23,691 bases of DNA from Promethearchaeota archaeon. Its GTDB lineage: Archaea > Asgardarchaeota > Lokiarchaeia > Sigynarchaeales > SOKP01. The DNA is taken from contig SDNV01000033.1 in assembly GCA_004524515.1 (NCBI GenBank), positions 1 through 23,691 on the forward strand, written 5' to 3'. This document shows, in pieces, positions 3,196 through 8,904 of the stretch; within the stretch, counting starts at the first letter, position 1, and the number at the start of each line of letters is the position of its first letter. Both the position numbers and the translations under genes were made by a program. The notes below the pieces were generated by a model. The model worked only from the letters and a program-made list of their open reading frames with translations, had not been told where the DNA came from and made no database searches.

Positions 3196-3269
3196 GCGAG
3201 AGTGGCTTAGCCTGGTATAGCGCACGGCTGATAACCGTGAGGTCGGGGGTTCGAAGCCCCCCTTTCGCA
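3196..3269 (+). tRNA. tRNA-Ile (anticodon GAU)
   Basis: A 74-base uninterrupted cloverleaf. Acceptor GCGAGAG (3196-3202) pairs with CTTTCGC (3262-3268) with one G-U; discriminator A3269. The anticodon stem CACGG/CCGTG (3223-3227, 3235-3239) encloses loop CTGATAA with anticodon GAT at 3230-3232. The T arm is GGGGG-TTCGAAG-CCCCC. No CCA is encoded, as usual in archaea. The GC-rich island stands out sharply from its AT-rich flanks. Confidence 0.96.
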
Positions 3270-3949: not shown

Positions 3950-3975
3950 AATTAAGAAGCATATGAAGATTATTG

Positions 3976-5631
3976 ATGAATTTTGAAATTTTAGATATTG
4001 ATGGATTAGGAAGAATTGGAAAAATAGAAGTAAATAATAAGCAAATAATTACTCCTAATTTATTTCCTGTTGTTCATCCTTATAGAAATATCATCCCACC
4101 TATTCATTTAAAAAAATTTGGGGTTCAAGCTTTATTCACAAATGCATATATTCTATACCAGAATGAAAATTTAAGAGAAGTAGTTAAAAAAAACAGTATC
4201 CATCATTATCTCAATTTTGAGGGATTAATAGCTACAGATAGTGGTGCCTTTCAGCAATATATGTATAATAATAACCAATTTAATATTAACGCTGAGGAAA
4301 TTGAAAAATTTCAAGAAGATATTAATTCAGATTTTCCAGTTATTTTAGATATACCCGTTCAACTGAAGGATACTTATCTCATTGCAAAGAAAAAAGTCTT
4401 AAACACTATTGAACGGGCAAAAGACAATATCGCACGGAGAACTAATGAAAATTGCAATTGGTTTGGTCCGATCCATGGTGGAAAATACCTCGATTTACTG
4501 GAATTTAGCTCGCGAGAAATGAGTAAATTGAAATTTGATGTCTTTGCGATTGGAGGTTTAGTTAAAGCTTTTTTAGAATATAGATTTGATTTAACACTTC
4601 AAATATTGTTGAATGTGAAAAAAAATCTAATTCCAAATAAACCAATTCATATGTTCGGATTAGGACTCCCTCAATTTTTTTCATTAGCTATTGCTTGTGG
4701 ATGTGATTTAATGGATTCTGCTGCATATATATTATATGCAAAAGAGAATAGATACTTTACCTTATCTACGGGGACAAAATCTTTAGAAGAATTAGAGGAA
4801 TTTCCTTGTCATTGTCCTATTTGTTGTGAATATTCACCAAAGGAATTGAAAAAATTAGAAAAATCAGATTGTATCGAATTATTAGCGAAACATAATTTAT
4901 ATTTATCATTTTCAGAACTGAAAACAGTTCGACAGGCGATAAGAGAGGGAAATTTATGGGAGCTTGTAGAGCAGAGAATTAAATCCCATCCATTTCTTGT
5001 TGAGGCGGCAAAGATTATAAAAAATTATATAGATTTCTTTGAGGCACATGAAAAAATATATAAGAATCATGGAAGATTGTTAGTCTCATCACAAAGTATT
5101 TCTCGACCTTTAATCCACCGATATATAGCAAGAATTACAGAAAATTATAGAATTCCTGAAAATGTGAAATATCTAATCGTTTTACCGGAATTAGATGTTA
5201 AGGGTGATTCATCTCTAACAGTACAAAACTGGTTAGAAGAAATTTATAAAGAAAATTTGGATTTTAAAGAATTCATTCATGTGGTATTTATGTCTGCATT
5301 TTTCGGAATTATCCCAATGGAATTGATTCATACTTTTCCTTTAGGACAAAATGAGTCAATTAAAGTTGTGGATGTTTATGATCTATTATATAAAAATTCA
5401 ATTGCAAAAGCTAAAATATTCTTTGATCAATTTTCAATGTCTTACGAGCAATGTGGTGTATTAATACCTAAAAATTTTATAAATCAATTTGAAGAATTAA
5501 TTGAATTTTCCAAGAATCATCCGATTCAGGGATTAGATAATATTTTAACTACAAAATTTAAATCAAATTATATTAAATCTGATAAAATATCAGAAATTCT
5601 TCAATTTTTTAAGGAAAAAAGAGAAAGATGA
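3976..5631 (+). CDS. tgtA: Archaeosine tRNA-guanine(15) transglycosylase with DUF5591-type C-terminal domain
   Basis: Exchanges guanine-15 in the tRNA D-loop for preQ0, the first committed step of archaeosine formation. Residues are counted from ATG 3976; an in-frame TTG at 3973 is less likely. The catalytic barrel shows TDSGAFQ (Asp88, base binding/acid role), GPIHGG (165-169), FAIGGLVK near 190, and DLMDSAAY with the expected nucleophile Asp247. The zinc site is Cys278, Cys280, Cys283 and probably His306. After about residue 350 comes a second domain with HVVFMSAFFGIIPMELIHTF, matching the DUF5591 domain shared by TgtA and ArcS. A C-terminal PUA domain, usual in archaeal TgtA, is not visible; the protein stops at 551 residues. 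Its stop overlaps the DUF371 start as ATGA, so translation is coupled. Confidence 0.94.
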   Translation: MNFEILDIDGLGRIGKIEVNNKQIITPNLFPVVHPYRNIIPPIHLKKFGVQALFTNAYILYQNENLREVVKKNSIHHYLNFEGLIATDSGAFQQYMYNNNQFNINAEEIEKFQEDINSDFPVILDIPVQLKDTYLIAKKKVLNTIERAKDNIARRTNENCNWFGPIHGGKYLDLLEFSSREMSKLKFDVFAIGGLVKAFLEYRFDLTLQILLNVKKNLIPNKPIHMFGLGLPQFFSLAIACGCDLMDSAAYILYAKENRYFTLSTGTKSLEELEEFPCHCPICCEYSPKELKKLEKSDCIELLAKHNLYLSFSELKTVRQAIREGNLWELVEQRIKSHPFLVEAAKIIKNYIDFFEAHEKIYKNHGRLLVSSQSISRPLIHRYIARITENYRIPENVKYLIVLPELDVKGDSSLTVQNWLEEIYKENLDFKEFIHVVFMSAFFGIIPMELIHTFPLGQNESIKVVDVYDLLYKNSIAKAKIFFDQFSMSYEQCGVLIPKNFINQFEELIEFSKNHPIQGLDNILTTKFKSNYIKSDKISEILQFFKEKRER

Positions 5632-6059
5632 TTTTAGAGGAAATTTATGCATTTGGACACAATTACATCCTTTGTACTCATAATACCACAATTGAGATCA
5701 CAAAAGAGAAAAATTTAACTAAAAAAGGTAATTGTATTTTAGGTATAAATTCGTCAAAAGCCTGTTCAGATCTCAATCAAAATTTAAAAAGCCAGCTTAA
5801 TCAAGGAAAGAAATTTAAAATTATTTTAAAAGTAAGAGATCAAATTGATCACTTCTATGGTTATGGTCACTCTAATTTGACGTTATTAGACAAAAGAGAT
5901 ATGGTTTTTAGAAAAAGTAAATTCATTTGTGATAGAACGGTTTTAATAAATTGTACTAAATCAGCTAGCGAATTGAATAGAAAGCTTATTGGGTACCTAA
6001 AAAACAAAGATGAGAAATTATCAATTTTATTTGAAAAATTAGAAGAAGATGAAGAATAA
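5628..6059 (+). CDS. DUF371 family archaeal protein
   Basis: A 143-residue protein matching DUF371, a small, nearly archaea-only family of unknown function. Recognisable elements are AFGH near residue 8, the HNTTIEITKEKNLTKKGNCI segment (residues 18-37), the GYGHSNLTL turn near residue 78 and the FRKSKF element near residue 93 followed by the RTVLINCTKSASELNR helix. No signal peptide or membrane segment. The start overlaps the TgtA stop by 4 bases (ATGA), and its last 11 bases overlap the Trm5 start, so it is embedded between two tRNA-modifying enzymes. This context suggests a job in tRNA maturation or translation, but it is only inference. Confidence 0.87.
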   Translation: MILEEIYAFGHNYILCTHNTTIEITKEKNLTKKGNCILGINSSKACSDLNQNLKSQLNQGKKFKIILKVRDQIDHFYGYGHSNLTLLDKRDMVFRKSKFICDRTVLINCTKSASELNRKLIGYLKNKDEKLSILFEKLEEDEE

Positions 6060-7188
6060 AGAAATTTCTTTTATAAAAGTCAAGAAAAGCGAAGGTCAAA
6101 CATTTTTAAAATTATTAAAAGCATATTTTAAAGACATTGCGATTATTAACAAGAAATTTAAAGTAGAACAAGAATCTAATTATATTCTTTTTCCCTTAAT
6201 AGACGATCATATAGAACTTAGGAATTTAATTAATAAAATTTCCAATAAAATTCCTTTTGAGATTGTACAAAAGCAAGGAATACTTAATTCTCAATTTAAA
6301 CCTAATACCTTATATGATTTTTTGAAAAATGAACTTCCTGATAAATTTTTAGATATGATTCCTCACTCCTATGATCAGTTAGGCAAAGTAGCCATTTTGG
6401 AATTCAAGAAATTTAAAGATTTAAAAAAAAAAGATACTACTATTATTAAAAAGAAAATAGCTAATGCGATAATAAATCTAAATAAAAATATTGAATCTGT
6501 TTTTGAAAAAAAAAGTAAAATAAGAGGTCAACATAGATTAAGAGAATTAGAATTTTTATATGGAGTGAATAATACTGAAACTTTATATAAAGAGAATGGC
6601 TGTATTTTTAAACTCGATATAGTTAAAACTTTTTTTACACCAAGACTAATTTATGAGAGAAAAAGAATTTCAGATGCCAATATAAATGAAAATGAACTTA
6701 TTGTTGATTTATTTGCAGGAGTAGGACCTTTTTCTATTCAAATCGCCAAAAAAAATAGGGTAAATATTTATTCTTTTGATATAAATCCTCTTGCTTATAA
6801 ATATCTGAGAGAAAATATTAAAAAAAATCATTTAAAAGGTAAAATTTTTCCTTACAATTTTGATGTTAAATCTCTTTTAGATCCACAAAACGAGCTGAGG
6901 AAAAAATTGAATGACAGTGCAGATAGAATAATCATGAATTTACCTGAAAATGCGATTAAATTCATAGATGTGGCATGTGTTTTAATGAAAAGATCAGGAG
7001 GAATATTACATATTTATCAGTTTTGTGAGCAACCAAATGCTATAGAAAAAGCCCTAGAAAACCTAACAAAAACTTTAAAAAATCTTAATTGGAAGGTAAA
7101 AGAAGTCTTGAATTCTAAAATTGTAAAATCCTATTCCCCTAAATCTGATATGATTGTGATTGATGCAGAAATTAAAATGCTCGAATAG
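6049..7188 (+). CDS. trm5: tRNA (guanine-37-N1)-methyltransferase Trm5
   Basis: Methylates N1 of G37 next to the anticodon using SAM, preventing frameshifting. The 379-residue protein has the archaeal Trm5 plan: a small N-terminal D1-like domain (about 1-65), a linker/D2 region with IPHSYDQLGKVAIL (104-117) and GQHRLRELEFLYG (160-172), and a Rossmann methyltransferase domain. In the latter, FTPRLIYERKRI (196-207) holds the Glu and Arg positions implicated in catalysis, VDLFAGVGPFS (219-229) is the SAM-binding motif, FDINP (243-247) the acidic ribose-binding loop and NLPE (297-300) the motif IV equivalent. Having D1 points to the Trm5b-like form. ATG 6049 overlaps DUF371 by 11 bases. It is last in the operon and converges with the coiled-coil gene 40 bases away. 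Confidence 0.93.
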   Translation: MKNKEISFIKVKKSEGQTFLKLLKAYFKDIAIINKKFKVEQESNYILFPLIDDHIELRNLINKISNKIPFEIVQKQGILNSQFKPNTLYDFLKNELPDKFLDMIPHSYDQLGKVAILEFKKFKDLKKKDTTIIKKKIANAIINLNKNIESVFEKKSKIRGQHRLRELEFLYGVNNTETLYKENGCIFKLDIVKTFFTPRLIYERKRISDANINENELIVDLFAGVGPFSIQIAKKNRVNIYSFDINPLAYKYLRENIKKNHLKGKIFPYNFDVKSLLDPQNELRKKLNDSADRIIMNLPENAIKFIDVACVLMKRSGGILHIYQFCEQPNAIEKALENLTKTLKNLNWKVKEVLNSKIVKSYSPKSDMIVIDAEIKMLE

Positions 7189-8546: not shown

Positions 8547-8599
8547 TAAAACATCAAAAACTTAATTTTTTAAAATCAAGGACCTATAGCCTAGCCTGG

Positions 8600-8628
8600 A
8601 GATTTTTATTTAAATAAAAATCGAGAAT
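8600..8628 (+). other. tRNA-Arg intron 1 (D-loop, after G18-G19)
   Basis: A 29-base intron whose core, 8601-8622, is a perfect inverted repeat (GATTTTTATTT and its complement) giving a strong hairpin. Three-base bulges GG|A (8598-8600) and AT|A (8627-8629) lie on opposite strands, separated by four positions (GCCT against GAGA). Only two of these four can pair, so the bulge-helix-bulge is relaxed. The cuts still give a canonical D-loop. Confidence 0.72.
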
Positions 8629-8669
8629 ATAGGGCGTCGGACTTCTAATCCGAAAGTCGCAGGTTCGAA

Positions 8670-8697
8670 ATGCGGCGGGATAACCCGAGCATGAAAA
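8670..8697 (+). other. tRNA-Arg intron 2 (T-loop, position 59/60)
   Basis: A 28-base GC-rich intron with a good bulge-helix-bulge. The outer helix is the T stem GCAGG/CCTGC, then a 3-base bulge AA|T (8696-8698), a central 4-bp helix TTCG/TGAA (8664-8667 with 8692-8695, one G-U), a 3-base bulge AA|A (8668-8670), and an inner helix TGC/GCA topped by a CGGG/CCCG hairpin. Cleavage after the second base of each bulge restores TTCGAAT exactly. Confidence 0.88.
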
Positions 8698-8904
8698 TCC
8701 TGCTAGGTCCGCTATTTTTCATATTGATGAGATGATTCTCATTATTTGTCGGCGGGAATGCGTTAGATTATCCTGATAAATTAATAAATCATTAATACAT
8801 CTCTTTTAATAAATTTATTTCATTAATGAAAGTTAGGAACCTTTATTTTTTTTGAAAAATTCTAAATTGACTTGCCAATTATTAACGAAAGCTGAGATAA
8901 AATA

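What the first reader, a model, noticed from the sequence alone, without database searches (positions are those of the whole stretch)
8580..8711. tRNA-Arg(UCU) interrupted by two introns, in the D-loop and the T-loop, but none in the anticodon loop
Removing 8600-8628 and 8670-8697 restores a 75-base tRNA with intact acceptor, anticodon and T stems. Multiple non-canonical tRNA introns are established mainly for Thermoproteales-type archaea. A gene that carries only elbow-region introns, in a low-GC Asgard-like genome, would extend that phenomenon and implies a splicing endonuclease with relaxed specificity.
Basis: partly seen in the sequence, partly recalled or inferred. Interest (0 to 1): 0.75.

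Follow-up and report, generated by a model that had tools for sequence, protein, structure and literature searches.

The report
Arginine tRNA gene with two introns
In a Lokiarchaeia (Asgard archaeon) contig, a tRNA gene for arginine is interrupted by two short introns in unusual places; relatives show the gene with and without them, and carry the kind of splicing enzyme that could remove them.

Summary
Removing 8600-8628 (D-loop, 19/20) and 8670-8697 (T-loop, 59/60) leaves a 75-nt tRNA-Arg(UCU) identical to uninterrupted genes in six other Lokiarchaeia genomes. Of 40 complete orthologues, 9 carry inserts in both loops, 7 in the D-loop only, 24 none. The inserts read as bulge-helix-bulge (BHB) introns: over distinct sequences the central helix pairs in 33 of 36 (D) and 27 of 28 (T) positions, reached by 0 of 2000 shuffles. 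The window's T-loop motif is canonical; its D-loop motif is degenerate (2 of 4 central pairs), so a tolerant endonuclease is needed. Lokiarchaeia encode a two-subunit EndA whose catalytic subunit has the Lys-Pro-Arg loop tied to broad specificity in Crenarchaeota; Lys-Pro is in 20 of 20 subunits sampled from the phylum. In G046, whose introns resemble the window's, 23 of 26 tRNA matches are interrupted by my reading. Multiple non-canonical tRNA introns were reported in two other Asgard lineages in 2024 (PMC11291895), so this is a new member of a known kind. RNA evidence is missing and the window's own genome is not held.

The parts
8580..8599 (+). exon 1: acceptor 5' strand, U8-A9, D-stem 5' strand, D-loop up to G18-G19
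   Evidence: identical to uninterrupted orthologues
8600..8628 (+). D-loop intron, 29 nt, between positions 19 and 20; hairpin 8601-8622
   Evidence: no D-loop insert in 24 of 40 complete orthologues, insert at this site in 12 of 40; in the BHB register bulges GG|A and AU|A, central helix GCCU/GAGA with 2 of 4 pairs
8629..8669 (+). exon 2: rest of D-arm, uninterrupted anticodon arm (UCU), variable region, T-stem 5' strand and UUCGAA
   Evidence: identical to uninterrupted orthologues
8670..8697 (+). T-loop intron, 28 nt, between positions 59 and 60
   Evidence: canonical BHB: outer helix GCAGG/CCUGC, 3-nt bulges AA|A and AA|U, central helix UUCG/UGAA 4 of 4 pairs; insert at this site in 9 of 40 orthologues
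8698..8711 (+). exon 3: T60, T-stem 3' strand, acceptor 3' strand, G73
   Evidence: identical to uninterrupted orthologues
3196..3269 (+). tRNA-Ile(GAU), uninterrupted; its counterpart in G046 carries a 30-nt T-loop insert at the same 59/60 site
3973..5631 (+). tgtA (archaeosine tRNA-guanine transglycosylase), used to find relatives
   Evidence: PF01702
6049..7188 (+). Trm5/TYW2-type tRNA methyltransferase, neighbouring tRNA-modification gene
   Evidence: PF02475

Best explanation
This is a working tRNA-Arg(UCU) gene with two BHB introns, in the D-loop (19/20) and the T-loop (59/60). Inferred mechanism: the transcript folds so that each exon-intron border forms two 3-nt bulges around a 4-bp helix; an (alpha-beta)2 splicing endonuclease with the Lys-Pro-Arg loop cuts after the second base of each bulge; RtcB joins the exons. 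At the T-loop the exon half of the central helix is the UUCG of the T-loop itself. Shown: spliced product equals intact orthologues; inserts recur at the same sites; pairing is kept across changing sequences; enzyme genes exist in relatives. Inferred: transcription, cleavage, ligation, and the presence of the enzyme in the window's own genome.
For: Identity of the spliced 75-mer to intact genes of six genomes. Inserts at both sites in 9, and at the D site alone in 3 more, of 40 complete orthologues. Central-helix pairs 33/36 and 27/28, 0 of 2000 shuffles as high; pairs of the intron hairpin reached by 0 (D) and 1 (T) of 2000. Exon and intron change together: GCAU/GUGU against GCCU/GGGU, UUCG/CGAA against UUCA/UGAA. 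One Arg(UCU) match in each of the 41 genomes with any; AGA is 111 of 205 arginine codons in 14 window ORFs. EndA catalytic paralogue in 19 of 20 and second paralogue in 19 of 20 Lokiarchaeia genomes; Tyr-His-Lys and Lys-Pro invariant in the 19; best sequence and fold match Aeropyrum pernix EndA 3p1z. RtcB in 5 of 5.
Against: The window's D-loop central helix pairs at 2 of 4 positions (G046: 3 of 4); 2039 of 5000 shuffles reach 2 pairs, though only 2 of 5000 reach helix and hairpin together. For the window's T intron alone the figures are 431 (helix) and 28 (both) of 5000. In 6 of the 16 distinct introns tested my script counts only 2 hairpin pairs next to the bulges. Related introns are not independent, so the pooled test overstates its strength. 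No RNA data. No whole genome for the window, so a second intact gene or absence of EndA cannot be excluded. G046 gave no EndA catalytic subunit, perhaps an assembly gap. 42 of 83 class genomes gave no Arg-arm match and were not searched further.
Confidence: 0.92

Rival explanations
1. Only the T-loop intron is removed; the D-loop insert, with its broken central helix, stays as an enlarged D-loop or makes the gene inactive.
For: D-loop central helix has 2 of 4 pairs in the window.
Against: The D insert has a hairpin of 9 pairs and is alike in sequence to G046's (0 of 5000 shuffles as good); in the 12 orthologues with this site the same register gives 3 of 4 (G046) or 4 of 4 (11 others) central pairs; a retained 29-nt insert between G19 and A20 would disturb the tRNA elbow (inference); relaxed BHB motifs are known substrates of (alpha-beta)2 EndA (PMC6379350, passages read).
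Confidence: 0.06
2. The gene is a decaying pseudogene with two unrelated hairpin insertions.
For: ARAGORN and Rfam miss it.
Against: Exons are letter-perfect; the same two sites are used in 9 other genomes, each with a single match to the Arg arm; exon and intron change together.
Confidence: 0.015
3. Assembly or cloning artefact at palindromic sequence.
For: The D insert holds a perfect 22-nt palindrome (8601-8622, read by eye); one relative (L098) looks like a contig chimera.
Against: Other assemblies (G046, G007, G018, G006 and more) have inserts at exactly the same sites.
Confidence: 0.005

Closest known systems
Multiple non-canonical BHB tRNA introns of Thermoproteales (e.g. Pyrobaculum)
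   Same: short introns at several sites of one tRNA gene; sites such as 20/21 and 59/60 are listed in the review PMC4090602 (passages read); BHB borders
   Different: a 28% GC Asgard lineage; D-loop site here reads as 19/20, which is not named in the passage I saw; D and T loop only in this gene
tRNA introns of Atabeyarchaeia and Freyarchaeia (PMC11291895, passages read)
   Same: Asgard archaea; 92-95% of tRNA genes with introns, often non-canonical, over half of the genes with several
   Different: another Asgard class (Lokiarchaeia); here the introns are compared across orthologues, with structure and enzyme
Crenarchaeal (alpha-beta)2 EndA with Crenarchaea-specific loop (Aeropyrum pernix, 3p1z)
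   Same: catalytic alpha with Tyr-His-Lys; loop Lys44-Pro45-Arg46 (named in PMC12397907, passages read) aligned to Loki Lys58-Pro59-Arg60; separate paralogue without the catalytic His
   Different: in Lokiarchaeia and in 20 of 20 subunits sampled from the phylum; third residue Lys, Arg or Gln; loop 53-65 modelled with pLDDT under 50; assembly and activity not tested
Cyanidioschyzon merolae tRNA-Ile(UAU) with D-, anticodon- and T-arm introns (PMC9602550, start of abstract seen in listing)
   Same: introns in both D- and T-arms of one tRNA
   Different: eukaryotic alga; also an anticodon-arm intron; no homology claimed

Membership tests
Archaeal BHB (EndA-spliced) tRNA intron | removal restores a complete tRNA | tested here: met
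Archaeal BHB (EndA-spliced) tRNA intron | 3-nt bulge, 4-bp helix, 3-nt bulge at the exon-intron borders, T-loop intron | tested here: met
   4 of 4 central pairs, 5 of 5 outer pairs, bulges of 3
Archaeal BHB (EndA-spliced) tRNA intron | the same motif, D-loop intron | tested here: inconclusive
   window 2 of 4 pairs, G046 3 of 4; the 7 other distinct D introns 4 of 4: a relaxed motif here
Archaeal BHB (EndA-spliced) tRNA intron | splicing endonuclease and ligase in the organism | tested here: inconclusive
   window genome not held; present in relatives; catalytic subunit not found in G046
Archaeal BHB (EndA-spliced) tRNA intron | excision and exon joining seen in RNA | not testable with these tools
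   no RNA data
Broad-specificity (alpha-beta)2 EndA with Crenarchaea-specific loop | catalytic Tyr, His, Lys in alpha | tested here: met
   invariant in 19 of 19 Loki alpha and in 15 of 15 rows of a wider alignment, 14 sampled genomes plus the G007 query
Broad-specificity (alpha-beta)2 EndA with Crenarchaea-specific loop | loop with Lys followed by Pro and a basic residue | tested here: met
   Lys-Pro in 19 of 19 Loki and 20 of 20 sampled; third residue basic in 19 of 19 and 18 of 20. The sample was drawn from the listed, better-scoring matches, 3 of the 20 from the same class as G046
Broad-specificity (alpha-beta)2 EndA with Crenarchaea-specific loop | second, non-catalytic subunit | tested here: met
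   second paralogue in 19 of 20 genomes; none of the 18 of 19 that my pattern read has His in the stretch where alpha has it, by eye
Broad-specificity (alpha-beta)2 EndA with Crenarchaea-specific loop | heterotetramer that cuts relaxed BHB substrates | not testable with these tools
   needs biochemistry

The most novel reading that the evidence does not exclude
A splicing endonuclease with the 'Crenarchaea-specific' Lys-Pro-Arg loop is ancestral to Asgard archaea, not confined to Crenarchaea, and licensed a wide spread of tRNA introns in Lokiarchaeia, where the universal T-loop sequence UUCR serves as a ready-made half of the splice motif and so as a recurrent landing site (Arg, Ile and Val in one genome). 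Relaxed tRNA splicing would then predate the eukaryotic enzyme rather than being a separate invention.
Probability: 0.4. Interest if true: 0.62.

Novelty: new member of a known kind. Interest (0 to 1): 0.45.

Why it matters
It shows that tRNA genes in Lokiarchaeia can escape ARAGORN and Rfam because they are cut in the D- and T-loops. The orthologue set gives natural with-and-without pairs of one tRNA, hence a direct test of what the endonuclease tolerates. The Lys-Pro-Arg/Lys loop, with Lys-Pro in all 20 sampled Asgard subunits, bears on how the eukaryotic tRNA splicing enzyme arose: PMC12397907 (abstract and passages read) proposes that such loops were acquired independently, and a word search of its main text finds no mention of Asgard.

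Tried and rejected
Group I or II intron: the inserts are 28-29 nt, too short (inference). Pseudogene and artefact: see rivals. A single origin of both introns: the tgtA tree leaves the window unplaced; the two-intron state needs 5 changes (at least 4 forced by well-supported branches when unknown rows count as lacking it; still 5 when the 16 unknown rows are left out, and 4 for the D-loop site alone). Only 8 of the 10 two-intron genes are in that tree. Gain, loss and gene replacement cannot be told apart; the intronless G010/G012/G013/G014 group inside a two-intron clade also has a different tRNA allele, and in G010, G012 and G014 the tRNA points the other way relative to tgtA than in G007 and G018, which suggests replacement rather than precise loss. 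Homology by sequence with G007: weak for the D intron (44 of 5000 shuffles as good), not supported for the T intron (498 of 5000), while with G046 it holds for both (0 of 5000). Intron transposition between Arg and Ile in G046: suggestive only (47 of 5000). A MAFFT alignment of 26 genes misplaced the 3' ends and was not used for pair counts. An automatic intron parse of the 26 G046 matches gave several false parses: it called 5 uninterrupted, of which I hold two (L142, L145) to be interrupted by their acceptor pairing and length, and left L160 unparsed; the count of 23 of 26 therefore rests on reading by eye. In one search, 6 of 20 subunits were missed by my pattern; all 20 were then read. Two sub-threshold third EndA matches (G064, G060) were ignored.

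Full report
What is there. Positions 8580-8711 (+) hold a tRNA gene. Taking out 8600-8628 and 8670-8697 leaves 75 nt with intact acceptor, D, anticodon and T arms, read by ARAGORN as tRNA-Arg(tct). ARAGORN and Rfam report nothing in the uncut gene but do find the tRNA-Ile(gat) at 3196-3269. The uncut transcript folds with the acceptor, anticodon and T stems plus one hairpin in each insert, -47.4 kcal/mol against -32.1 +/- 3.5 for 200 shuffles. The contig is Lokiarchaeia: its tgtA is 57-65% identical to 20 Lokiarchaeota/Lokiarchaeia MAG loci. No whole genome is held for it.

Comparison with relatives. The spliced 75-mer occurs, uninterrupted and identical, in six genomes: G002, G004, G054, G056, G059, G060. 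A search of 83 class genomes for the Arg anticodon arm (18 nt, up to 1 mismatch) found one match in each of 41 genomes and none in 42; a gene with an anticodon-loop intron would be missed. Of the 41, one gene (G001) is cut by a contig end; of the other 40, 9 have inserts in both D- and T-loop, 7 in the D-loop only (one of them, G065, probably a chimeric contig), 24 none. Further exact copies of the 13-nt arm core in G007 (1), G018 (2) and G006 (2) do not lie in tRNA genes, by eye. In 12 of the 16 genes with a D-loop insert the site is that of the window. By eye, G041 and G042 use a site two bases further on (20a/21), and G052 and G065 a third; these four were not in the shuffle test.

Structure. 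With the borders fixed by the intact orthologues, I asked whether the BHB register (outer exon helix, 3-nt bulge, 4-bp exon-intron helix, 3-nt bulge, intron hairpin) is paired. Over distinct introns, central-helix pairs were 33 of 36 in 9 D introns (shuffle mean 12.8) and 27 of 28 in 7 T introns (mean 11.9), reached by 0 of 2000 dinucleotide shuffles; hairpin pairs were 55 (mean 14.0) and 26 (mean 9.3), reached by 0 and 1 of 2000. In 6 of these 16 introns the script counts only 2 hairpin pairs beside the bulges, so hairpins are less regular there. Exon and intron change together: GCAU/GUGU against GCCU/GGGU in the D-loop, UUCG/CGAA against UUCA/UGAA in the T-loop. Against this, the window's own D intron pairs at only 2 of 4 central positions (GCCU/GAGA), G046's at 3 of 4. 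The test treats related introns as separate, which overstates its strength.

Neighbouring evidence. The window's uninterrupted tRNA-Ile equals G046's tRNA-Ile after a 30-nt T-loop insert at the same 59/60 site is set aside: presence and absence run the other way round for this gene. In G046 a tRNA-family search scored 150 of 353 candidates and gave 26 matches, 16 of them over the family cut-off; by eye 23 of 26 are interrupted genes, most outside the anticodon loop, including a T-loop insert in Val. So the finding looks like one case of a genome-wide condition, though this is no census.

Enzymes. Of 20 Lokiarchaeia genomes searched for the EndA catalytic domain (G046 was in both), 19 have a paralogue with Tyr, His and Lys, 19 a second paralogue, 18 both; G046 lacks the first, G035 the second. 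The catalytic one matches A. pernix EndA best by sequence (3p1z, 3.2e-34) and by predicted fold (4.3e-15, rmsd 4.4; model pLDDT 79, but under 50 in the loop 53-65). In the sequence alignment Loki Lys58-Pro59-Arg60 sits on A. pernix Lys44-Pro45-Arg46, residues that papers tie to cleavage and broad specificity (PMC12397907 and PMC6379350, passages read). Lys-Pro is in 19 of 19 Loki subunits. In the phylum of G046, 205 of 227 genomes have a match to the subunit; I fetched 20 from the listed matches, the weakest not being listed, and all 20 have Lys-Pro, with Gln as third residue in two. RtcB ligase is in 5 of 5.

How it most likely works. Shown: intact orthologues, shared sites, conserved pairing, enzyme genes in relatives. 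Inferred: transcription, cleavage by (alpha-beta)2 EndA, joining by RtcB. The introns part G18-G19 from the rest of the D-loop and split the T-loop, so the tertiary elbow, and the modifications that need it, can probably form only after splicing (inference from general tRNA knowledge).

Known or new. Non-canonical multiple introns are known from Thermoproteales and, since 2024, from Atabeyarchaeia and Freyarchaeia (PMC11291895, passages). Searches for Lokiarchaeia or Asgard tRNA introns and splicing endonuclease listed no paper that I saw to describe them in this class; I opened eight papers at passages, the rest I saw only as listings, and only open-licence papers are held. A word search of PMC12397907 and PMC6379350 finds no Asgard. 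Verdict: real, explained, a new member of a known kind, with a promising side finding in the enzyme.

Noticed in passing
window 3196-3269; L160 (G046): tRNA-Ile(GAU) is uninterrupted in the window but carries a 30-nt T-loop insert at 59/60 in G046, with identical exons.
   Followed up: yes
L135-L160 (G046): By eye 23 of 26 tRNA-family matches in this genome are interrupted, many in the D-loop, some with what look like several introns; a full census was not possible.
   Followed up: partly
L098 (G065), 1471-1575: tRNA-Arg with a D-loop insert whose 5' part equals G052 and whose 3' end and flank equal G066; acceptor pairs 6 of 7: probably a chimeric contig.
   Followed up: no
L086 (G052), 1471-1575: D-loop insert built of repeated AGCC/TAGCC units that resemble the exon around it, unlike the other introns.
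   Followed up: no
G046: EndA catalytic subunit not found although the other subunit and RtcB are; gap in the assembly or real absence.
   Followed up: partly
L237-L256 and Loki alpha loci L116-L124, L211-L220: The loop motif called Crenarchaea-specific is present in sampled Asgard EndA catalytic subunits: Lys-Pro in 20 of 20, then Lys or Arg in 18 of 20.
   Followed up: partly
window 3973-7188: tRNA-modification genes (tgtA, Trm5/TYW2-type methyltransferase) lie beside the tRNA gene.
   Followed up: no
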